A DNA stretch of 64,000 bases from Salvelinus alpinus (taxonomy: Eukaryota > Chordata > Actinopteri > Salmoniformes > Salmonidae). The notes under the pieces are model-generated. The model made no database searches. It saw nothing but the letters and a program-made list of their open reading frames with translations, and had not been told where the DNA came from. The stretch is taken from positions 37,855,430 to 37,919,429 of the forward strand of contig NC_092094.1 in assembly GCF_045679555.1 (NCBI RefSeq), given 5' to 3'. The position numbers and the translations under genes are program-made. How positions within the stretch are numbered: position 1 is the first letter of the stretch; every line of letters starts with the position of its first letter. Shown piece after piece: positions 5,898 to 62,419 of the stretch.

Positions 5898-7288
5898 CAG
5901 CTTGACAATTAACCTTGTTACAGAGCCAGAGAGGGCGAACAGCTTGACAGTTAACCCTGTTACAGAGCCAGAGAGGGGGAACAGCTTGACAGTTAACCCT
6001 GTTACAGAGCCAGAGAGGGCGAACAGCTTGACAGTTAACCCTGTTACAGAGCCAGAGAGGGCGAACAGCTTGACAGTTAACCCTGTTACAGAGCCAGAGA
6101 GGGCGAACAGCTTGACAGTTAACCCTGTTACAGAGCCAGAGAGGGCGAACAGCTTGACAGTTAACCCTGTTACAGAGCCAGAGAGGGCGAATAGCTTGAC
6201 AGTTAACCCTGTTACAGAGCCAGAGAGGGCGAACAGCTTGACAGTTAACCCTGTTACAGAGCCAGAGAGGGCGAACAGCTTGACAGTTAACCCTGTTACA
6301 GAGCCAGAGAGGGCGAACAGCTTGACAGTTAACCCTGTTACAGAGCCAGAGAGGGCGAACAGCTTGACAGTTAACCCTGTTACAGAGCCAGAGAGGGCGA
6401 ACAGCTTGACAGTTAACCCTGTTACAGAGCCAGAGAGGGCGAACAGCTTGACAGTTAACCCTGTTACAGAGCCAGAGAGGGCGAACAGCTTGACAGTTAA
6501 CCCTGTTACAGAGCCAGAGAGGGCGAACAGCTTGACAGTTAACCCTGTTACAGAGCCAGAGAGGGCGAACAGCTTGACAGTTAACCCTGTTACAGAGCCA
6601 GAGAGGGCGAACAGCTTGACAGTTAACCCTGTTACAGAGCCAGAGAGGGCGAACAGCTTGACAGTTAACCCTGTTACAGAGCCAGAGAGGGCGAACAGCT
6701 TGACAGTTAACCCTGTTACAGAGCCAGAGAGGGCGAACAGCTTGACAGTTAACCCTGTTACAGAGCCAGAGAGGGCGAACAGCTTGACAGTTAACCCTGT
6801 TACAGAGCCAGAGAGGGCGAACAGCTTGACAGTTAACCCTGTTACAGAGCCAGAGAGGGCGAACAGCTTGACAGTTAACCCTGTTACAGAGCCAGAGAGG
6901 GGGAACAGCTTGACAGTTAACCCTGTTACAGAGCCAGAGAGGGAACTGCTTGACAGTTAACCCTGTTACAGAGCCAGAGAGGGGGAACAGCTTGACAGTT
7001 AACCCTGTTACAGAGCCAGAGAGGGGGAACAGCTTGACAGTTAACCCTGTTACAGAGTCAGAGAGGGGGAACAGCGTGACAGTTAACCCTGTTACAGAGC
7101 CAGAGAGGGGGAACCGCGTGACAGTTAACCCTGTTACAGAGCCAGAGAGGGGGAACAGCTTGACAGTTAACCCTGTTACAGAGCCAGAGAGGGGGAACAG
7201 CTTGACAGTTAACCCTGTTACAGAGCCAGAGAGGGGGAACCGCGTGACAGTTAACCCTGTTACAGAGCCAGAGAGGGGGAACAGCTTG
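5898..7288. repeat. 42-bp minisatellite, about 33 units
   Basis: The unit is GAGCCAGAGAGGGCGAACAG followed by CTTGACAGTTAACCCTGTTACA. Units from about 6001 to 6890 are nearly identical and carry GGGCGAAC. The outer units, mainly on the right (6891-7288), carry GGGGGAAC and several private changes (CCGCGTGAC, GAGTCAGAG). One unit near 6943 has lost 2 bp, which breaks the long frame. Because 42 is a multiple of 3 and the unit has no stop in several frames, open frames of 350-500 codons appear on both strands. These are artefacts: both strands are open and there are no splice or codon signals. Confidence 0.97.
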
Positions 7289-10200: not shown

Positions 10201-10411
10201 AGTCAGTGTTACTGCATTACAGAATCAGGCTTAGCAGGCGCAGTTATCCTCTGATTAGGAACATATATCCGAGGAATAGTCTGTCTGCCAGGCTGTCTTC
10301 CAAGCTGTCTGTCTACCAGGCTGTCTGCCAGACTGTCTGCCAGGCTGTCTGTGATTGTATATATGTATGTTTGTGAGTTCTGCCCTGGCATGGTGTCAGG
10401 TGAATGCAGGG
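7289..10411. other. Non-coding interval with a degenerate dispersed repeat
   Basis: No gene recognised. About 8391-8560 has CATATGA/TCATATG-rich sequence resembling a dispersed fish repeat (weak, from memory). The 10270-10350 stretch has short CTGTCTGCCAGG repeats. cbfb exons 1-3 were looked for by their conserved peptides and not seen. Confidence 0.4.
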
Positions 10412-13400
10412 CAGTTAGGGGGCTATAACTGGGTTTGGGCGGGAGGGGGTCAGTTAGGGGGCTATAACTGGGTTTGGGCGGGAGGGGGTCAGTTAGGGGG
10501 CTATAACTGGGTTTGGGCGGGAAGTGGTCAGTTAGGGGGCTATAACTGGGTTTGGGCGGGAGAGGGTCAGTTAGGGGGCTATAACTGGGTTTGGGCGGGA
10601 GGGGGTCAGTTAGGGGGCTATAACTGGGTTTGGGCGGGAGGGGGTCAGTTAGGGGGCTATAACTGGGTTTGGGCGGGAGGGGTCAGTTAGGGGGCTATAA
10701 CTGGGTTTGGGCGGGAGGAGGTCAGTTAGGGGGCTATAACTGGGTTTGGGCGGGAGGGGGTCAGTTAGGGGGCTATAACTGGGTTTGGGCGGGAGGGGGT
10801 CAGTTAGGGGGCTATAACTGGGTTTGGGCGGGAGGGGGTCAGTTAGGGGGCTATAACTGGGTTTGGGCGGGAGGGGGTCAGTTAGGGGGCTATAACTGGG
10901 TTTGGGCGGGAGAGGGTCAGTTAGGGGGCTATAACTGGGTTTGGGCGGGAGGGGGTCAGTTAGGGGGCTATAACTGGGTTTGGGCGGGAAGTGGTCAGTT
11001 AGGGGGCTATAACTGGGTTTGGGCGGGAGAGGGTCAGTTAGGGGGCTATAACTGGGTTTGGGCGGGAGAGGGTCAGTTAGGGGGCTATAACTGGGTTTGG
11101 GCAGGAGGGGGTCAGTTAAGGGGCTATAACTGGGTTTGGGCGGGAGGGGTCAGTTAGGGGGCTATAACTGGGTTTGGGCGGGAGGGGGTCAGTTAGGGGG
11201 CTATAACTGGGTTTGGGCGGGAGGGGTCAGTTAGGGGGCTATAACTGGGTTTGGGCGGGAGAGGGTCAGTTAGGGGGCTATAACTGGGTTTGGGCGGGAG
11301 GGGGTCAGTTAGGGGGCTATAACTGGGTTTGGCGGGAGGGGGTCAGTTAGGGGGCTATAACTGGGTTTGGGCGGGAGGGGGTCAGTTAGGGGGCTATAAC
11401 TGGGTTTGGGCGGGAGGGGGTCAGTTAGGGGGCTATAACTGGGTTTGGGCGGGAGGTGGTCAGTTAGGGGGCTATAACTGGGTTTGGGCGGGAGGGGGTC
11501 AGTTAGGGGGCTATAACTGGGTTTGGGCGGGAGGTGGTCAGTTAGGGGGCTATAACTGGGTTTGGGCGGGAGAGGGTCAGTTAGGGGGCTATAACTGGGT
11601 TTGGGCGGGAGGGGGTCAGTTAGGGGGCTATAACTGGGTTTGGGCGGGAGAGGGTCAGTTAGGGGGCTATAACTGGGTTTGGGCGGGAGGGGATCAGTTA
11701 GGGGGCTATAACTGGGTTTGGGCGGGAGGGGGTCAGTTAGGGGGCTATAACTGGGTTTGGGCAGGAGGGAGTCAGTTAGGGGGCTATAACTGGGTTTGGG
11801 CGGGAGGGGGTCAGTTAGGGGGCTATAACTGGGTTTGGGCAGGAGGGGGTCAGTTAGGGGGCTATAACTGGGTTTGGGCGGGAGGAGGTCAGTTAGGGGG
11901 CTATAACTGGGTTTGGGCGGGAGGGGGTCAGTTAGGGGGCTATAACTGGGTTTGGGCGGGAGGGGGTCAGTTAGGGGGCTATAACTGGGTTTGGGCGGGA
12001 GGAGGTCAGTTAGGGGGCTATAACTGGGTTTGGGCGGGGGGGGGTCAGTTAGGGGGCTATAACTGGGTTTGGGCGGGTGGGGGTCAGTTAGGGGGCTATA
12101 ACTGGGTTTGGGCGGGAGGGGGTCAGTTAGGGGGCTATAACTGGGTTTGGGCGGGAGGGGGTCAGTTAGGGGGCTATAACTGGGTTTGGGCGGGAGAGGG
12201 TCAGTTAGGGGGCTATAACTGGGTTTGGGCGGGAGAGGGTCAGTTAGGGGGCTATAACTGGGTTTGGGCGGGAGGGGGTCAGTTAGGGGGCTATAACTGG
12301 GTTTGGGCGGGAGAGGGTCAGTTAGGGGGCTATAACTGGGTTTGGGCGGGAGAGGGTCAGTTAGGGGGCTATACCTCGTTTTGGGCGGGAAGTGGTCAGT
12401 TAGGGGGCTATAACTGGGTTTGGGCGGGAGAGGGTCAGTTAGGGGGCTATAACTGGGTTTGGGCGGGAGGGGGTCAGTTAGGGGGCTATAACTGGGTTTG
12501 GGCGGGAAGTGGTCAGTTAGGGGGCTATAACTGGGTTTGGGCGGGAGAGGGTCAGTTAGGGGGCTATAACTGGGTTTGGGCGGGAGGGGGTCAGTTAGGG
12601 GGCTATAACTGGGTTTGGGCGGGAGGGGTCAGTTAGGGGGCTATAACTGGGTTTGGGCGGGAGGGGGTCAGTTAGGGGGCTATAACTGGGTTTGGGCGGG
12701 AGGGGGTCAGTTAGGGGGCTATAACTGGGTTTGGGCGGGAGGGGGTCAGTTAGGGGGCTATAACTGGGTTTGGGCGGGAGGGGGTCAGTTAGGGGGCTAT
12801 AACTGGGTTTGGGCGGGAGGGGGTCAGTTAGGGGGCTATAACTGGGTTTGGGCGGGAGAGGGTCAGTTAGGGGGCTATAACTGGGTTTGGGCGGGAGGGG
12901 GTCAGTTAGGGGGCTATAACTGGGTTTGGGCGGGAAGTGGTCAGTTAGGGGGCTATAACTGGGTTTGGGCGGGAGAGGGTCAGTTAGGGGGCTATAACTG
13001 GGTTTGGGCGGGAGAGGGTCAGTTAGGGGGCTATAACTGGGTTTGGGCAGGAGGGGGTCAGTTAAGGGGCTATAACTGGGTTTGGGCGGGAGGGGTCAGT
13101 TAGGGGGCTATAACTGGGTTTGGGCAGGAGGGGGTCAGTTAAGGGGCTATAACTGGGTTTGGGCGGGAGGTGTCAGTTAGGGGGCTATAACTGGGTTTGG
13201 GCGGGAGGGGGTCAGTTAGGGGGCTATAACTGGGTTTGGGCGGGAGGGGTCAGTTAGGGGGCTATAACTGGGTTTGGGCGGGAGAGGGTCAGTTAGGGGG
13301 CTATAACTGGGTTTGGGCGGGAGGGGGTCAGTTAGGGGGCTATAACTGGGTTTGGCGGGAGGGGGTCAGTTAGGGGGCTATAACTGGGTTTGGGCGGGAG

Positions 13401-14514
13401 GGGGTCAGTTAGGGGGCTATAACTGGGTTTGGGCGGGAGGGGGTCAGTTAGGGGGCTATAACTGGGTTTGGGCGGGAGGTGGTCAGTTAGGGGGCTATAA
13501 CTGGGTTTGGGCGGGAGGGGGTCAGTTAGGGGGCTATAACTGGGTTTGGGCGGGAGGTGGTCAGTTAGGGGGCTATAACTGGGTTTGGGCGGGAGAGGGT
13601 CAGTTAGGGGGCTATAACTGGGTTTGGGCGGGAGGGGGTCAGTTAGGGGGCTATAACTGGGTTTGGGCGGGAGAGGGTCAGTTAGGGGGCTATAACTGGG
13701 TTTGGGCGGGAGGGGATCAGTTAGGGGGCTATAACTGGGTTTGGGCGGGAGGGGGTCAGTTAGGGGGCTATAACTGGGTTTGGGCAGGAGGGAGTCAGTT
13801 AGGGGGCTATAACTGGGTTTGGGCGGGAGGGGGTCAGTTAGGGGGCTATAACTGGGTTTGGGCAGGAGGGGGTCAGTTAGGGGGCTATAACTGGGTTTGG
13901 GCGGGAGGAGGTCAGTTAGGGGGCTATAACTGGGTTTGGGCGGGAGGGGGTCAGTTAGGGGGCTATAACTGGGTTTGGGCGGGAGGGGTCAGTTAGGGGG
14001 CTATAACTGGGTTTGGGCGGGAGGAGGTCAGTTAGGGGGCTATAACTGGGTTTGGGCGGGAGGGGGTCAGTTAGGGGGCTATAACTGGGTTTGGGCGGGA
14101 GGGGGTCAGTTAGGGGGCTATAACTGGGTTTGGGCGGGAGGGGGTCAGTTAGGGGGCTATAACTGGGTTTGGGCGGGAGGGGGTCAGTTAGGGGGCTATA
14201 ACTGGGTTTGGGCGGGAGGTGGTCAGTTAGGTGGCTATAACTGGGTTTGGGCGGGAGGAGGTCAGTTAGGGGGCTATAACTGGGTTTGGGCGGGAGGGGG
14301 TCAGTTAGGGGGCTATAACTGGGTTTGGGCGGGAGGGGGTCAGTTAGGGGGCTATAACTGGGTTTGGGCGGGAGGGGGTCAGTTAGGGGGCTATAACTGG
14401 GTTTGGGCGGGAGGGGGTCAGTTAGGGGGCTATAACTGGGTTTGGGCGGGAGGGGGTCAGTTAGGGGGCTATAACTGGGTTTGGGCGGGAGGTGGTCAGT
14501 AAAAGGGCTATAAC
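10412..14514. repeat. 39-bp G-rich minisatellite, about 105 units (4.1 kb)
   Basis: The unit is GTCAGTTAGGGGGCTATAAC followed by TGGGTTTGGGCGGGAGGGG. Each + strand unit contains five G-runs, including GGGTTTGGGCGGGAGGGGG, a canonical intramolecular G-quadruplex motif with loops of 3, 1 and 1 nt. Variants sit mainly in the last G-run (GAGGGG, GAGAGG, GAAGTGG, GAGGAGG). A few 38-bp units lack one G (near 10675, 11155, 11220, 11331, 12620, 13095, 13250, 13348, 13981) and break the otherwise open frame. The frames encoding GQLGGYNWVWAGG repeats are not treated as genes. A longer-range duplication inside the array is described in the findings. Confidence 0.98.
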
Positions 14515-15012
<498 letters not shown>

Positions 15013-15539
15013 CGGGTTTGATCTCAACGATGAAGGATGTGTGTGTGCTCATAGATATGGATAGACTGATACTGCATCTAAAAAAAACAACTCAGCCCTG
15101 ATTAGGATTGCACACACTACTCCCGTAAAGGAACTGTGCTGACTCGACTCCCAGGGACTTCCTGCTTCTCCATATCTAGCGGAGCAGAGGGGAGGGAACA
15201 GATAGAGATACTGTGATAGGGGGAGGGGGAGATGGAGGCTGGGGGTTGGGTAGCCAGGTTGAGAAGCAGCTGTGGTTCAGTTGCTGTAGACAATGAATGT
15301 CCATCAGTACAGTCTGATAGGGTCCCTCCCTCCCATGGCTGGAGCCCCCGGCCGGCCCCTCTGGGTCCCTGCTGTAGAGGGCCAGGCTGACTGGCCCGGG
15401 CCTGGGAGGCCTTACTCACACACACACAAACTACACATCCACACACACACCATTACAAAAACACCCACACAGTACACATTCACATATCCACATCTAAGTC
15501 ATCTTCGGGGCAAAGGTGAAGTCACTCACACTGTGTAGT

Positions 15540-16705
15540 ATTGCATTACAGACTGTAGTGTGTCGGTATTCTGTCCTGTAGTTACCATTACAGACTGTAG
15601 TGTGTCGGTATTCTGTCCTGTAGTTACCATTACAGACTGTAGTGTGTCGGTATTCTGTCCTGTAGTTACCATTACAGACTGTAGTGTGTCGGTATTCTGT
15701 CCTGTAGTTACCATTACAGACTGTAGTGTGTCGGTATTCTGTCCTGTAGTTACCATTACAGACTGTAGTGTGTCGGTATTCTGTCCTACAGTTACCATTA
15801 CAGATTGTAGTGTGTGGGTATTCTACCCTGTAGTTACCATTGCCAGCGTTAGTGTGTGGGTATTCTACCCTGTAGTTACCATTGCCAGCGTTAGTGTGTG
15901 GGTAGTCTACCCTGTGGTTACCATTGCCAGCGTTAGTGTGTGGGTATTCTACCCTGTAGTTACCATTGCCAGCGTTAGTGTGTGGGCATTCTACCCTGTA
16001 GTTACCATTGCCAGCGTTAGTGTGTGGGTATCCTACCCTGTAGTTACCATTGCAGACTTAGTGTGTGGGTATTCTACCCTGTAGTTACCATTGCCAGCGT
16101 TAGTGTGTGGGTATTCTACCCTGTAGTTACCATTGCCAGCGTTAGTGTGTGGGTAGTCTACCCTGTAGTTACCATTGCCAGCGTTAGTGTGTGGGTATTC
16201 TACCCTGTAGTTACCATTGCCAGCGTTAGTGTGTGGGTATTCTACCCTGTAGTTACCATTGCCAGCGTTAGTGTGTGGGTATTCTACCCTGTAGTTACCA
16301 TTGCCAGCGTTAGTGTGTGGGTATTCTACCCTGTAGTTACCATTGCCAGCGTTAGTGTGTGGGTATTCTACCCTGTGGTTACCATTGCCAGCGTTAGTGT
16401 GTGGGTATTCTACCCTGTAATTACCATTGCCAGCGTTAGTGTGTGGGTATTCTACCCTGTGGTTACCATTGCCAGCGTTAGTGTGTGGGTAATCTACCCT
16501 GTAGTTACCATTGCCAGCGTTAGTGTGTGGGTATTCTACCCTGTAATTACCATTGCCAGCGTTAGTGTGTGGGTATTCTACCCTGTGGTTACCATTGCCA
16601 GCGTTAGTGTGTGGGTATTCTACCCTGTAATTACCATTGCCAGCGCTAGTGTGTGGGTATTCTACCCTGTAATTACCATTGCCAGCGCTAGTGTGTGGGC
16701 ACTGG
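15540..16705. repeat. 42-bp minisatellite with two subfamilies, about 28 units
   Basis: The first 6 or so units (15540-15790) are type A: ACAGACTGTAGTGTGTCGGT, then ATTCTGTCCTGTAGTTACCATT. The rest (about 15830-16705) are type B: GCCAGCGTTAGTGTGTGGGT, then ATTCTACCCTGTAGTTACCATT. Units around 15780-15830 are intermediate. A unit near 16050 inside the B block carries type A-like GCAGACTTAG and is 1 bp shorter. Long frames here are artefacts of a 3n period. Confidence 0.96.
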
Positions 16706-23035: not shown

Positions 23036-24641
23036 CAGTGCATTTGGAAAGTATTTAGACCCCTTGACTTTTTTAACGTTTTGTTACGTTACAACCTTAT
23101 TCTAAAATGGATGAAATAATTTTTTTCACTCATCAATCTACACACAATATCCCATAATGACAAAGCAAAAACAGGTTTTTAGATTATTTTGTAAATTTAT
23201 TACAACTAAAAAACTGAAATATCACATTTACATAAGTATTCAGACCCTTTACTCGGTACTTTGTTGAAGCACCTTTGGCAGCGATTACAGCCTTGAGTCT
23301 TCTTGGGTATGACGCTACAAGCTTGGTACACCTGTATTTGGGGAATTTCTCACATTCTTCTCTGCAGATCCTCTCAAGCTCTGTCAGGTTGGATGGGGAG
23401 CGTCGCTGCACAGCTAGTTTCAGGTCTCTCCAGAGATGTCCAATCGGGTTCAAGTCCGGGCTCTGGCTGGGCCACTCAAGAACATTCAGAGACTTGTCCC
23501 GAAGCCACTCCTGCATTGTCTTGGCTGTGTGCTTAGTGTCATTGTCCTGATGGAAGGAAAACCTTTGCCCCAGTCCGAGGTCCTGAGCGCTCTGGAGCAG
23601 GTTTTCATCAAGAAACTCTCTGTACTTTGCTCCATTCATCTTTCCCTCGATCCTGACTAGTCTCCCTGCCACTGAAACATATCCCCACAGCATGATGCTG
23701 CCACCACCATGCTTCACCGTAGGGATGGTGCCAGGTTTCCTCCAGACGTGACGCTTGGCATTCAGGACAAAGAGTTCAATCTTGGTTTCAACAGACCAGA
23801 GAATCTTGTTTCTCATGGTCAGAGTCCTGTAGATGCCTTTTGGCAAACTCCAAGTGAGCTGTCATGTGCCTTTCACTGAGAAGTGGATTCCGTCTGGCCA
23901 CTCAAGCATAAAGGCCTGATTGGTGGATTGCTGCAGAGATGGTTGTCCTTCTGGAAGGTTCTCCCATCCCCACAGAGGAACTCTGGAGCTCTGTCAGAGT
24001 GACCATCGGGTTCTTGGTCACCTCCCTGACCATGGCCCTTCTCCCCTGATTGCTCAGTTTGGCCGGGTGGCCAGCTCTCGGAAGAGTCTTGGTGATTCCA
24101 AACTTCTTCCATTTAAGAATGATGAAGGCCACCGTGTTCTTGGGGATCTTCAATGCTGAAGACATTTTTTGCTACACTTCCCCAGATCTGTGCCCCGACA
24201 CAATCCTGTCTCGGAGCTCTACGGACAATTCCTTCAACCTCATGGCTTGGTTTTTGCTCTGACATGCACTGTCAACTGTGGGACCTTATATAGACAGGTG
24301 TGTGCCTTTCCAAATCATGTCCAATCAATTGAATTTTCCACAAGTGGACTCCAAGCAAGTTGTAGAAACATCTCAAGGATGATCAATGGAAACAGGATGC
24401 ACCTGAGCTCAATTTCGAGTCTTATAGCAAAGGGTCTGAATACTTATGTAAATTAGGTATTTCTGATTTTTATTTGTAATAAATTTGCAAAGAAATCCAA
24501 AACCTGTTTTCTCTTTGTCATTATGGGGTATTTTGTGTAGATTGACAAGTATTTTTTTTATTTAATCCATTTTAGAATAAGGGTGTAATGTAATAAAATG
24601 TGGAAAAAGTGAAGCGGTCTGAATACTTTCCAAATGCACTG
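23036..24641 (-). mobile_element. Full-length Tc1-like transposon (1.6 kb), inactive
   Basis: Inverted ends CAGTGCATTTGGAAAGTATT and complement, flanked by TA at 23034-23035 and 24642-24643. The inner stretches resemble each other over about 190 bp. The minus strand carries the transposase in two pieces: the N-terminal DNA-binding region at about 23902-24260 and the catalytic region at 23184-23846. The first catalytic Asp is replaced (LWSVETKIELF instead of [11 protein letters not shown]) and the Glu is replaced (NPIGHLW instead of NPIEHLW). HQDNDTKH keeps the second Asp. With a frameshift as well, the copy is dead. Confidence 0.93.
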
Positions 24642-27929: not shown

Positions 27930-32711
<4,782 letters not shown>

Positions 32712-38516: not shown

Positions 38517-40889
<2,373 letters not shown>

Positions 40890-42837: not shown

Positions 42838-44409
42838 AACAAGTATTTGATACACTGCCGATTTTGCAGGTTTTCCTACTTACAAAGCATGTAGAGGTCT
42901 GTACACTTCAACTGTGAGAGACGGAATCTAAAAAATGAATCCAGAAAATCACATTGTATGATTTTTAAGTAATTAATTTGCATTTTATTGCATGACATAA
43001 GTATTTGATACATCAGAAAAGCAGAACTTAATATTTGGTACACAAACCTTTGTTTGCAATTACAGAGATCATACGTTTCCTGGAGTTCTTGACCAGGTTT
43101 GCACACACTGCAGCAGGGATTTTGTCCCACTCCTCCATACAGACCTTCTCCAGATCCTTCAGGTTTCGGGGCTGTCGCTGGGCAATACGGACTTTCAGCG
43201 CCCTCCAAAGATTTTCTATTGGGTTCAGGTCTGGAGACTGGCTAGGCCACTCCAGGACCTTGAGATGCTTCTTACAGTCCTTAGTTTCCCTGGCTGTGTG
43301 TTTCGGGTCGTTGTCATGCTGGAAGACCCAGCCACGACCCATCTTCAATGCTCTTACTGAGGGAAGGAGGTTGTTGGCCAAGATCTCGCGATACATGGCC
43401 CCATCCATCCTCCCCTCAATACGGTGCAGTCGTCCTGTCCCCTTTGCAGAAAAGCATCCCCAAAGAATGATGTTTCCACCTCCATGCTTCACGGTTGGGA
43501 TGGTGTTCTTGGGGTTGTACTCATCCTTCTTCTTCCTCCAAACACGTCGAGTGGAGTTTAGACCAAAAAGCTCAATTTTTGTCTCATCAGACCACATGAC
43601 CTTCTCCCATTCTTCCTCTGGATCATCCAGATGGTCATTGGCAAACTTCAGACGGGCCTGGACATGCCCTGGCTTGAGCAGGGGGACCTTGCGTGCGCTG
43701 CAGTATTTTAATCCATGACGGCATAGTGTGTTACTAATGGTTTTCTTTGAGACTGTGGTCCCAGCTCTCTTCAGGTCATTGACCAGGTCCTGCCGTGTAG
43801 TTCTGGGCTGATCCCTCACCTTCCTCATGATCAATGATGCCCCACGAGGTGAGATCTTGCATGGAGCCCCAGACCGAGGATGATTGACCGTCATCTTGAA
43901 CTTCTTCCATTTTCTAATAATTGCGCCAACAGTTGTTGCCTTCTCACCAAGCTGCTTGCCTATTGTCCTGTAGCCCATCCCAGCCTTGTGCAGGTCTACA
44001 ATTTTATCCCTGATGTCCTTACACAGCTCTCTGGTCTTGGCCATTGTGGAGAGGTTGGAGTCTGCTTGATTGAGTGTGTGGACAGGTGTCTTTTATACAG
44101 GTAACGAGTTCAAACAGGTGCAGTTAATACAGGTAATGAGTGGAGAACAGGAGGGCTTCTTAAAGAAAAACTAACAGGTCTGTGAGAGCCGGAATTCTTA
44201 CTGGTTGGAAGGTGATCAAATACTTATGTCTTGCAATAAAATGCAAATTAATTACTTAAAAATCATACAATGTGATTTTCTGGATTTTTGTTTTAGATTC
44301 CGTCTCTCACAGTTGAAGTGTACCTATGATAAAAATTACAGACCTCTACATGCTTTGTAAGTAGGAAAACCTGCAAAATCGGCAGTGTATCAAATACTTG
44401 TTCTCCCCA

Positions 44410-58947: not shown

Positions 58948-60315
58948 TCAATGCTTTACAAACACTGTAACATCATAGTCCTGTTCCACTGTAGTCTCGG
59001 AGTCCTTCTGTCCTGTTGTTCCGAGTACCTTGCCCCTCCACTTAAAGGGCCATGGGGTGGGGGCCAGGTTACTGTGACAGCTCAGTTGGGGGTCATGCAG
59101 CAGGTTCCACATGAGCCAGATCTGTGGCACTGTCAAGCTGTGTACCACCATCAGCTCCCTGTAGAAACAAGGGTCAAACACCTGGAGGTGGGGAGCAGCC
59201 GAGGGGCGCACAATTCCAAATGTACGGAAACCTTCATGGCGTGACGGTTTGACTCCGATTCTCTTTAAGCACATGCCTAAGAACACATCGTCGATGGGGA
59301 ATAGTTCTACCTGCTGACACGCTCCACTCAGCCGCCTGGCGGTGTGGCCGGACATCACAAAGCCTCCCCCTCCTGCATATGATGGATACATCGTCTGGCC
59401 GTACACAAACTCAGGCACAAAGTACTTGCTGCTGCGCCGGCGGATGGGGCGGGCGTGGTGGATTATGTCACCCACAAAGAGGTCCTTGTCAGGCTTCTGA
59501 CCCTTCAGCATCTGCAAAATGTTGTCTATATTCACGTAGACATCAGCATCACCTTTGAAGATAAACTGGACATTGGAGCAGCTGTCATTCACCCACTGGA
59601 GGAAGTGGGTCTCTTTAAGTGTCAAATTGAAAAATGTGTCATCAAAGTCCCAGAGGAGAATGTCCCCAAAGGTGTGGCTCTCATAGGCAAGGAGCCGGTC
59701 CCATAAAGGCAGGGCTGTCTTGTTCCTGGGTACCCCAAGGAGGAATACAGTCTTCACTGTCTGCAAATCCGGGAGAACACCCTCTCTTCCCCAGGTGTGC
59801 CGCACTACCTGCCTTCTTTCAAAGTCTGCTGCTACGGACTTGATAGTAATGAGCATGTAGAGCTCGCCTGAGCACTTCCCTGGCTGGTCTATCAGCAGTC
59901 TGAAGTCCCGGTTGTCCTTATCTCGTAGGTAACCCTCAAAGTCAAAAGGTGGTTGTGTGGGTAAAACAGGAGCAGCCTTTGTTGGAGCAACCTTCTTTGT
60001 CCCCTCATCTTTCTTTGACTTGGATCTAGATTTGGTCTTGGCCTTAGGTTTGGATTTAGACTGAAGTTTGGACTTCGGATGTGACTGAGGCTCAGACTGG
60101 CACTTTGTCTTATCTGGGTGCGTAGAGGGGACCAGTTTAGTCACGTGGCTCTCTGGTAGAGCCCCTAGAAGAGCACGGGAGCTTGTAGAGCCCTGCTCTA
60201 AGTGCCAAGTGTCCCAGGTGGGAGTGAAGCATTGGTGGGCGTACAACAGCAGACAGAGTAGCCCCAGCATGAGCAGGGTGCACAGAACATCTCCTTTTAT
60301 GTGAATTCTCCTCAT
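58948..60315 (-). CDS. b3gnt9: Beta-1,3-N-acetylglucosaminyltransferase 9-like, 455 aa, single coding exon
   Basis: A family 31 glycosyltransferase, a type II Golgi membrane protein expected to add GlcNAc in beta-1,3 linkage to galactose. The acceptor of this member is poorly defined. Visible parts are a short basic cytosolic tail (MRRIHIKGD), a membrane anchor at about 10-26, and a stem with a Lys/Ser-rich run at 81-108. The catalytic domain runs from about 148 with VFLLGVPRN (190-198), [18 protein letters not shown] (218-235), the DxD-type metal site GDADVYVN (255-262), [11 protein letters not shown] (313-323) and [12 protein letters not shown] (339-350). N-glycosylation sequons are at 198, 230 and 243. 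Human B3GNT9 is about 402 residues; this one is longer in the stem and has a C-terminal extension after WPFKWRG. No intron breaks the frame, as in human. Location next to phaf1 supports the call. Confidence 0.93.
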
Positions 60316-62419
60316 TGTGTCCTACTGAACCTATTTCCCTTCAAAGGCTTTTCCCATTAATTTGTATTTTCCTCTTCCTCAGGATCTCTGAGATCAGAAA
60401 GCTCCATACAGCATCCTGTGAAGAGTTCACAATACTGATCACCCATGCAAGAGCAATTCCCGAGAGGTTTTCTGGGGGACCCTGAGGTCCTGCTGGATAA
60501 TGCTCAGTAACCCAACACTCTGCAGTCCTTATGTTTCTACTCCAGTATCTCAGAGGGGTTTTCCCTTTAGTCTGCAAAATTCATTCCATTTAATCTCTTC
60601 GGCAGGCTGTAATCCTAAATATGAAAATAAATCACGAGAATTACATTGTACACAAACAAGGAAAATAACAAAATATATTTGACAAAAGTTTTTGTTGTTG
60701 TTGTTACTTTTATATTTGCAGTTACTTTGTATATTTTGTTCTTATTTTTCTTTGACTTTATTATTCATAAATTATCTGAGGCGCCATTACAGGGATATCT
60801 GCAGTTCAAACTCATTTCCCCAAGTTTCCAGAACTAATGCAAGAATGTTCATACCTTTTCCTATAGCAGACACGCCCCCTCAAAGGAACAGAACAGATCA
60901 TCTCCCAGTAGTCTACAGAAATTGACCACGGTTTCCAAGTTAGCGTTCAAATGACACCTCAGAAGCAAATGTTAAGCCAGACCAAAATGTTCCAAAAGAT
61001 TTTGAAGAACGACTTCATTGCCACCCCTCTCCTATAGGACCTAACCCCAAATCTGGTCAATTCGGCTATTATGAGGGCTGTCGGATCGTATGTAAACTCT
61101 ACATAAGATTTCTAAATAGAAAATTCTTTCTTGTGTGCGTTAGAACATAGTGTTCCGAACTCAATGTCCCTATCTTAATCTCCTTCACAAATGTAACTAT
61201 TTATTGGTTCACCATGCAGTTTATAATTTGCAAAAATGCATCTTAAAATGCATAATTTTTCAGACATGTATGCGTTAACTCAAAGGAAAGCTTTTGTCGC
61301 ATGTAAAAAAAGAAAAAGCCGACCATGACGCATTAGATTTACATATAATTGCCAGACTGTTGCATGTTTGCATAATACAGGGAGCCCTATATTGAATGAC
61401 AGCGTTTGTATTGTATCAGTATATGTGTACAAAGTATTCAATCTACGCATCAGTCATCATACTTACCACAACAGATGAAAGTCACCAAAGCAATTTATAG
61501 CGACACTGCCAAACCCGGGAACATCTGGTTTCTGTATGAAAACTGCAGTCTCTGACAGTGCTGGGGTCCAACAAAAACGAAGTTTAAAATGGAGAGAGAA
61601 AAATACATGAAATGAATACAGACCTACATGGTGTATGGAGGGAGGCTCAGTAAGGTAAAGTTAACTTTTTGAAAAACGTGCAAAATTGGCAAGACAGCAT
61701 TTTAACGGTATTCATTTCACTGGTCACGTGACACGTGTGGGAGTCGCTGGTCCAGCTGTACGCCAGATGCCAACGCAGCAACTGGAAGCGGACTCTCCAA
61801 GAATATGAAGGAAGGGGAAAGGGGGGAGCATAATGATCCGGACCTAGCAGACTTATTTTTTTGTCAGACACTTTGTACTTTTATCGTGGTGATTGATGTT
61901 CTTGCAATACAGCACCATATGCACTTCTAGCCCCTAGCTGTCTTAAATGGCTGCAATTTAGGAGCTGGATTCACTTAACAGCAATCTGGCCTGAGAGACA
62001 TTGAAGACATTCATTCAACCAACAAGACTTGAATGAAAATACTACAATGAAAACCAAAAACAGACATATTAAGTTAAAAGACCATTTAATTTAGGGTTAC
62101 ATTTTCTGCACACACAAAGTTCCCTGACTATTTACAATCTATAAAATGTAAACGTGTATCACACTATGCTGGTCCCATTTAACATTAAAGGAGTATAGAT
62201 TTCTTTGGCTAGAAAACCACATTTACAACGTGACAGTTACTCCCACCCACTGACTCTTCTAAAACATCACTGCTGACCAATATGACATCTAGGGGTGCAG
62301 GAGAGGCCTGTCTTTTCTTCAGGCCTTGTCACTAGTGAACTAGACTTTCTTCACACTTATAAAGCCTCCTCTCCTGGCTCCCCCCGGACTGGCTCCCCCC
62401 TCTCACACAGGGGGTACCC
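60316..62419 (-). other. b3gnt9 upstream region and bbs2 3' end
   Basis: No further gene. The half near 60316-61560 should hold the b3gnt9 leader and promoter, with no clear start. The part just below 62420 is the bbs2 3' UTR, and a minus-strand ATTAAA at 62095-62100 is a possible polyadenylation signal. Confidence 0.4.

What the first reader, a model, noticed from the sequence alone, without database searches (positions are those of the whole stretch)
10412..14514. About 105 tandem G-quadruplex motifs in one 4.1-kb minisatellite
Every 39-bp unit contains GGGTTTGGGCGGGAGGGGG, with G-run loops of 3, 1 and 1 nt, plus another GGGGG run, all on the + strand. Arrays of this kind (human CEB1 is the classic case) are unstable in replication and can affect nearby transcription. 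If cbfb intron 3 spans this region, the G-rich strand is the coding-sense strand and would also be G-rich in the pre-mRNA and in R-loops.
Basis: partly seen in the sequence, partly recalled or inferred. Interest (0 to 1): 0.7.

Follow-up and report, generated by a model that had tools for sequence, protein, structure and literature searches.

The report
G-rich minisatellite in a cbfb intron
A 4.1-kb array of about 105 G-rich repeats sits in an intron of a fish gene; it is an ordinary kind of repeat, but the fish's second copy of the gene has only about two and a half units at the same place, so the pair offers a natural before-and-after comparison of how such repeats grow.

Summary
The array is real: 10412-14514, period 39, 105 full units plus an 18-bp partial. 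78 of 105 hold a canonical G-quadruplex (G4) motif, and 82 non-overlapping motifs lie in the array, none on the - strand. The conditional placement was right: intron 3 (28,370 bp) of cbfb, G-rich strand in sense.

New here: a second cbfb copy on contig C15 has about 2.5 units of the same repeat at the same intronic position, without the GGGC-type insert, so the 3/1/1-loop G4 is absent there. In the 2.37-Gb genome the unit was found only at these two places. A small, probably pre-duplication seed grew about 40-fold on one copy.

Six other repeats in and beside the intron were compared; five show similarly one-sided growth, and most lack G4 motifs, so G4 is not required. Minisatellites fill 26% of 160 kb sampled, so the repeat load is ordinary; the G4 density is not. 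New member of a known kind (CEB1/CEB25, TERT VNTR6-1). Folding, length variation and effects on cbfb are untested.

The parts
10412..14514 (+). 39-bp G-rich minisatellite: 105 full units (95 of 39 bp, 10 of 38 bp) plus an 18-bp partial; 82 non-overlapping canonical G4 motifs on the sense strand
10412..10450 (+). first consensus unit CAGTTAGGGGGCTATAACTGGGTTTGGGCGGGAGGGGGT: a 6-bp inverted repeat (CAGTTA/TAACTG) with a G5 run in its loop, then four G runs with loops of 3, 1 and 1 nt
   Evidence: predicted hairpin and G4
10451..11928 (+). block 1 of the internal higher-order duplication (units 2-39)
12436..13951 (+). block 2 of the internal duplication (units 53-91); longest exact repeat 817 bp (11149 and 13172), offset 2023
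14497..14514 (+). terminal partial unit CAGTAAAAGGGCTATAAC; the C15 seed ends with a matching 18-bp partial
27930..28046 (+). cbfb exon 4 (117 bp); its intron 3 begins before the window, after C9:37854988
28309..28404 (+). cbfb exon 5 (96 bp), placed by reading the frame and splice-like borders
5898..7288 (+). comparison array S1, 42-bp unit, 33 copies here, 227 on C15, no canonical G4 motif in either
15556..16699 (+). comparison array S3, 42-bp unit, 27 copies here, one to two diverged copies on C15
20516..20810 (+). comparison array S4, 60-bp unit, 4.9 copies here, one on C15
30688..31552 (+). comparison array S7, 39-bp unit, 22 identical copies downstream of exon 5, one copy on C15

Best explanation
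This is an intronic, G4-capable minisatellite of the CEB1/CEB25 kind that grew in place from a seed of two to three units, probably already present in cbfb intron 3 before the gene was duplicated (by the salmonid genome duplication, inferred). On C15 the seed has about 2.5 units of 34-35 bp. On C9 the unit carries an extra GGGC-type insert that gives four G runs with loops of 3, 1 and 1 nt, and the array has about 105 units, in part through duplication of a roughly 1.5-kb block. Shown here: the anatomy, the gene context, sense-strand G-richness, the C15 seed, no other match found in the genome, and the block duplication in the assembly. Inferred: growth by replication slippage or template switching and unequal exchange, helped but not dictated by stable short-loop G4s; the G4 fold itself; and that pre-mRNA and non-template strand can form G4s and R-loops, probably with little effect on cbfb.
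For: Array and unit statistics. cbfb exons on both sides and sense orientation. C15 seed at the matching position with similar flanks. The first 29 bp of the unit with up to 3 mismatches: 105 forward matches and 1 reverse in the genome; the listed places are in this array except one at the C15 seed. 3/1/1-loop motif 58 times in the array, 0 in 47 kb of C15; 58 of 700 such motifs in the genome. ViennaRNA with its G4 term: consensus unit -25.3 against -5.6 kcal/mol without; no G4 in the predicted structure of the C15 seed. Internal duplication, alignment score 63 against a maximum of 19 in 100 shuffled unit orders. In yeast, short G4 loops and intact G tracts go with CEB25/CEB1 instability (PMC5491262 and PMC2673046, passages).
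Against: Arrays without G4 motifs grew in the same intron, the longest one (9.6 kb, C15) included. The C15 seed still meets the loose canonical G4 rule twice. 27 of 105 units lack an in-unit canonical motif. Whether the insert came before the growth, and whether the seed is ancestral rather than a collapsed array, cannot be told without an outgroup. Chromosomal position is interior (37.9 Mb of an 87.5-Mb contig), whereas the human examples are subtelomeric. No fold, read or expression data.
Confidence: 0.72

Rival explanations
1. G4-neutral growth: the array expanded by the same general process that fills this genome with minisatellites, and its G-richness is an accident of the seed; G4 plays no causal part.
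For: 41,529 of 160,000 sampled bp are minisatellite with 13 G4 motifs in all. In and beside the same intron S1, S3, S4, S6 and S7 grew without canonical G4 motifs. The concentration of variants in the last G run is matched by one non-G4 array among 15.
Against: The only copy of this seed that grew is the one with the short-loop motif, which is a single case; yeast work links such motifs to instability.
Confidence: 0.45
2. A regulatory array: about 80 G4s on the sense strand slow elongation or change splicing of cbfb exon 4, as reported for TERT VNTR6-1, so that the two cbfb copies differ in output.
For: Intronic, sense-strand G4, 105 units; exon 4 is 117 bp, so skipping would keep the frame. 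TERT VNTR6-1 (38-bp unit, 24-66.5 copies, sense G4) alters splicing (PMC11722454, abstract and passages). A recalled R-loop rule marks 10409-15554.
Against: No RNA data. The array lies 13.4 kb from exon 4 and 10.9 kb from exon 3, against about 3.5 kb in TERT. Similar repeat loads are common in this genome. The C15 copy also carries long arrays in this intron.
Confidence: 0.12
3. Contraction on C15: a long array existed before the gene duplication and collapsed to 2.5 units on C15.
For: Minisatellites shrink as well as grow; no outgroup was available here.
Against: The two C15 units lack the GGGC-type insert and differ from each other by 3 changes in 35 bp (read), while C9 units outside positions 30-38 differ from the consensus at 9 of 3,150 sites. 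A recent remnant of the C9-type array should look like C9 units. Old contraction is not excluded.
Confidence: 0.12
4. Copy number or block duplication is partly an assembly product (two haplotypes joined, or reads misplaced in the array).
For: Two nearly identical blocks with an 817-bp exact repeat; such arrays are hard to assemble. No reads could be examined.
Against: 16 full-unit types in a readable order with clean flanks, and a C15 seed at the expected place. Only the exact number of units is in doubt.
Confidence: 0.1
5. A cluster of binding sites: the unit repeats GGGCGG (GC-box/Sp1-like, and E2F-like in its longer form; motifs recalled) and may act as an intronic enhancer or a sink for these factors.
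For: GGGCGGGA occurs 94 times in the array, 0 times in the rest of the window and 0 times in 47 kb of C15.
Against: Follows from repetition of one unit; no binding, chromatin or expression data; motif names are recalled and no motif scan was run.
Confidence: 0.05

Closest known systems
Human CEB1 minisatellite (and CEB25)
   Same: Unit of 39 nt, strong G/C strand bias, short-loop G4-forming units in tandem (PMC5491262, passages; PMC2673046, passages).
   Different: CEB1 is 77% GC with a GC skew of 77%; this array is 60% GC with a skew of about 0.65. The 3/1/1 loops match the canonical rule, which CEB1 does not. Interior of a chromosome-sized contig instead of subtelomeric; intronic. Folding and instability not shown.
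TERT intron 6 VNTR6-1
   Same: Intronic array of a 38-bp unit with G4 motifs in the sense orientation; 35-113 G4s per allele against about 82 here (PMC11722454, abstract and passages).
   Different: Polymorphism and an effect on splicing are reported for TERT; neither was testable here. The unit sequence is different, and the distance to the next exon is about 13.4 kb instead of about 3.5 kb.
SLC6A3 intron 8 hypervariable VNTR (TR21)
   Same: G4-prone intronic array whose alleles range from 3.4 to 133.4 copies (PMC9909461, outline and section 7), like the range of 2.5 to 105 between the two fish copies.
   Different: There the range is among alleles of one locus; here it is between two duplicated genes in one assembly.
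Jeffreys core minisatellites (core recalled as GGGCAGGANG)
   Same: GGGCAGGA occurs 7 times in 105 units; the common unit has GGGCGGGA, one base away.
   Different: May be chance in a G-rich unit; the core is recalled and its enrichment was not tested.

Membership tests
Minisatellite | Head-to-tail copies of a unit of about 10-60 bp over hundreds of bases or more | tested here: met
   Period 39, 105.5 copies, 96% matches
CEB1/CEB25-type G4 minisatellite | Strong strand asymmetry of G, with G4 motifs in most units | tested here: met
   G fraction 0.496, C 0.104; 78 of 105 units with an in-unit canonical motif
CEB1/CEB25-type G4 minisatellite | Short G4 loops (the class most destabilising in yeast) | tested here: met
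   58 motifs with loops 3/1/1 in the array; by sequence only
CEB1/CEB25-type G4 minisatellite | Unit folds into a G4 in vitro | not testable with these tools
   Predicted only, with RNA parameters
CEB1/CEB25-type G4 minisatellite | Unstable length that depends on G4 (Pif1 or ligand sensitivity) | not testable with these tools
   One assembly; internal duplication and the 105 against 2.5 contrast are indirect
CEB1/CEB25-type G4 minisatellite | Subtelomeric location (true of the human examples; not a defining feature of the mechanism) | tested here: not met
   C9:37.87 Mb of an 87.5-Mb contig; that the contig is a whole chromosome is inferred
TERT VNTR6-1-like intronic G4 VNTR | Lies in an intron with the G4 strand in sense | tested here: met
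   Between cbfb exons 3 and 4, + strand
TERT VNTR6-1-like intronic G4 VNTR | Copy number varies among individuals | not testable with these tools
   Only one assembly held
TERT VNTR6-1-like intronic G4 VNTR | Alters splicing or expression of its gene | not testable with these tools

The most novel reading that the evidence does not exclude
A small insertion (about four bases, GGGC-type) in one of two duplicated introns turned a long-dormant seed of about 2.5 units into a short-loop G4 repeat and set off a roughly 40-fold expansion, which now loads only one of the two cbfb pre-mRNAs with about 80 G4s and makes the two gene copies differ in transcription or splicing.
Probability: 0.15. Interest if true: 0.65.

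Novelty: new member of a known kind. Interest (0 to 1): 0.42.

Why it matters
Minisatellite birth is usually inferred from an array that has already grown. Here a duplicated genome holds a small and a grown form of the same repeat at the same place in two copies of one gene, and five of six further repeats in and beside the same intron show the same contrast, in either direction. That makes it possible to ask directly, with internal controls, whether short-loop G4 motifs speed up repeat growth or merely ride along, and whether such an array changes the gene that carries it.

Tried and rejected
Protein-coding reading: 39 = 13 codons, so long stretches of the array are open in both directions (437 and 439 aa). 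Rejected because 38-bp units break the frame, the array is intronic, and the other long arrays of the window are open too.

Dispersed repeat family: not supported. The first 29 bp with up to 3 mismatches were found in the array and once on C15.

Mutation hot spot at the last G run as a trace of G4 (a polymerase copying the G-rich strand meets that run first): 54 of 72 differences and 8 of 17 variant types lie in positions 34-38, against 4 differences and 2 types in the other G5 run (type total). But the idea came after seeing the data; 8 against 2 gives one-sided P = 0.055; and the concentration test, P = 0.009, is matched by a non-G4 array with P = 0.008 among the 15 arrays examined. Kept only as a weak lead.

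Repeat-rich intron as something special: rejected. 6,933 of 27,926 bp (24.8%) of the window part of the C9 intron is minisatellite by my filter, against 41,529 of 160,000 bp (26%) in 16 sampled stretches.

A count of the looser pattern GGGNNNGGGNGGGNGGG was useless: 113,954 matches, the listed ones mostly poly-G.

Papers: I saw only listings (titles and opening lines of abstracts) for salmonid or fish minisatellites, for cbfb with intron and salmon (6 of 53 papers listed), and for G-quadruplex with fish genome, tandem repeat and minisatellite (0 papers). No earlier report of this array shows in those listings; most hits were not listed and none of the bodies was read.
Full report
Observation. 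The window holds a 39-bp tandem array at 10412-14514 with 105.5 copies, 96% matches, score 7681. Cutting at the CAGTTA anchor gives 105 full units (95 of 39 bp, 10 of 38 bp; 16 types) and an 18-bp partial. A canonical G4 motif lies inside 78 of 105 units, and 82 non-overlapping motifs lie in the array, 0 on the - strand. Base shuffles give 16.7 on average and a dinucleotide model 41.9, with maxima of 24 and 54 in 200 each; 9.5% of 200 arrays built from a shuffled unit also reach 82. G4Hunter averages 1.50 over the array. With ViennaRNA's G4 term (RNA parameters) one consensus unit drops from -5.6 to -25.3 kcal/mol, with the G4 beside a small CAGTTA/TAACTG hairpin. Of the seven commonest types folded, D equals the consensus and the others are weaker: B -19.2; C, E and F -15.3; G -12.0.

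Gene context. The CBF-beta family (PF02312) matches two loci in this genome, on C9 and C15, with four exon matches each (8 in all). On C9, exon 3 ends at 37854988, exon 4 is window 27930-28046 and exon 5 window 28309-28404, all on + (exon 5 read by eye from the frame). Intron 3 is 28,370 bp; the array starts 10,853 bases after exon 3 and ends 13,416 before exon 4. An R-loop rule of the QmRLFS type, recalled from memory, marks 10409-15554 as one of four sense-strand zones in the window, with three on the other strand.

The second gene copy. Intron 3 of the C15 copy (about 29.8 kb between the family matches) aligns with the C9 intron in blocks of mostly 73-89% identity, most of them in the same order. 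At the same place C15 has two units of 34 and 35 bp and an 18-bp partial, about 2.5 units, near C15:29077241-29077327, with similar sequence on both sides (the lengths counted by eye). Its units read CAGTTAGGGGCTATAACTGGGTTTTGGGGGGGGT and CAGTTAGGGGGCTATAACTGGGTTTGAGGGGGGGT: the GGGC-type insert of the C9 unit is missing. The 3/1/1-loop motif occurs 58 times in the C9 array and 0 times in 47 kb of C15. C15 still meets the loose canonical rule twice, with loops up to 7 nt, but its best predicted structure contains no G4. A genome search for the first 29 bp with up to 3 mismatches gives 105 forward matches and 1 reverse; the listed places are in this array except one at the C15 seed. So the repeat appears private to this intron in its two copies, and its first duplication most simply predates the gene duplication.

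Other repeats in and beside the intron, C9 copies against C15 copies: S1 42-bp 33/227; S3 42-bp 27/one to two diverged; S4 60-bp 4.9/1; S5 22-bp 1/58; S6 36-bp 1/13; S7 39-bp (downstream of exon 5) 22/1 (single copies are partial matches of 19, 28 and 44 bp for S5, S6 and S4; for S3 the unit search itself found no C15 match, and the copies are read from the alignment and the sequence). With the G4 array, six of seven are at 2.5 copies or fewer on one side and grown on the other; S1 has grown on both. Canonical G4 motifs in the grown arrays: 82 here, 5 in S5, 0 in S1 (both copies), S3, S4 and S6; the window list shows none in the span of S7. So seeds grow here with or without G4, on either copy, and the longest array of all (S1 on C15, 9.6 kb) has none.

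How ordinary is it? In 16 stretches of 10 kb, one on each of C1-C16, 41,529 of 160,000 bp are minisatellite by my filter (period of at least 10, span of at least 100); 11 of 16 have some and 9 of 16 more than 1 kb; they hold 13 G4 motifs in all. The repeat load of the intron (6,933 of 27,926 bp) is therefore typical; the G4 content is not. The strict motif GGGHHHGGGHGGGHGGG is reported 700 times in the genome (357 + 343), and 58 of these are here. Only the first places were listed (C1 to part of C4). They include smaller clusters of up to 9 such motifs. I fetched three (at C1:18382301, C2:90157201 and C3:94414801); all are tandem G-rich arrays of other units, with 9, 11 and 18 canonical G4 motifs in the fetched stretch; the first two run to the edge of what I fetched. 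G4 minisatellites are thus a recurrent minor class in this genome, and this one has far more strict motifs than any cluster in the listed part; the unlisted places were not seen.

Growth history. The unit string shows a higher-order duplication: units 2-39 (10451-11928) and 53-91 (12436-13951) align with score 63, against a maximum of 19 in 100 shuffled orders; the longest exact repeat is 817 bp at offset 2023. This suggests block duplication by unequal exchange or template switching, or else two haplotypes joined in assembly; no reads were available. Outside positions 30-38 the units differ from the consensus at 9 of 3,150 sites, far below the divergence of the two introns, so the present array is young or well homogenised. 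Variation is concentrated in positions 30-38 (63 of 72 differences), but among 15 arrays analysed one non-G4 array is as concentrated, so I do not count this as a G4 signature.

Mechanism, with steps marked. Shown: seed and array at one locus, one-sided copy number, short-loop motif only in the grown copy, block duplication in the assembly, sense orientation in cbfb. Inferred: slippage, template switching and unequal exchange as the growth process; stable G4s as a helper. For the helper role, yeast work on CEB1 and CEB25 ties instability to short loops and intact G tracts (PMC5491262 and PMC2673046, passages). Against it stand the G4-free arrays next door. I put the chance that G4 contributed causally at about 0.4-0.5, and that the array measurably alters cbfb at about 0.12.

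Comparison. It works most like CEB1/CEB25 as DNA and, if it affects its gene at all, most like TERT VNTR6-1 (38 bp, intronic, sense G4, splicing effect; PMC11722454, abstract and passages). The SLC6A3 intron 8 VNTR spans 3.4 to 133.4 copies among human alleles (PMC9909461, outline and section 7), a range like that between the two fish copies here. It is a new member of a known kind. That the fish is a salmonid, and that the two copies come from the salmonid genome duplication, is my inference from genome size, two cbfb loci and alignable introns; no tool named the species.

Noticed in passing
window 30688-31552: A 39-bp array of 22 copies with no difference among units, against one copy at 87% identity on C15 that is followed by a 7-base repeat of its own start (CTGTAAT): looks like a very recent birth from a seed with short direct repeats.
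   Followed up: partly
window 5898-7288 and C15 about 29080754-29090342: The same 42-bp repeat is an array on both gene copies (33 and 227 copies), so it was either an array before the duplication or grew twice.
   Followed up: partly
L026 1-10000, L033 1-7458, L023 1-6293: Sampled stretches almost wholly made of minisatellite (51-, 41- and 17-bp units); 26% of the 160 kb sampled is minisatellite, a remarkable load for a vertebrate genome if it holds genome-wide.
   Followed up: partly
L040, L041, L042: Other tandem G4 arrays with unrelated units; that of L042, CAGGACAGGGTTAGGGGGTCTGGGAGGGAGGGGGT, ends much like the cbfb unit (GGGAGGGGGT before CAG).
   Followed up: partly
window 14827-15010: A (TG)n tract that turns into (GGGT)n just downstream of the array, with four more canonical G4 motifs at 14942-15008.
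   Followed up: no
window 38870-39856 (+), 43028-44092 (-), 23184-23861 (-): Long frames that look like Tc1-type transposases (identification recalled from motifs, no search run).
   Followed up: no
window 58948-60321 (-): A 457-aa single frame that looks like a beta-1,3-N-acetylglucosaminyltransferase such as b3gnt9, recalled as a neighbour of CBFB in human (no search run).
   Followed up: no
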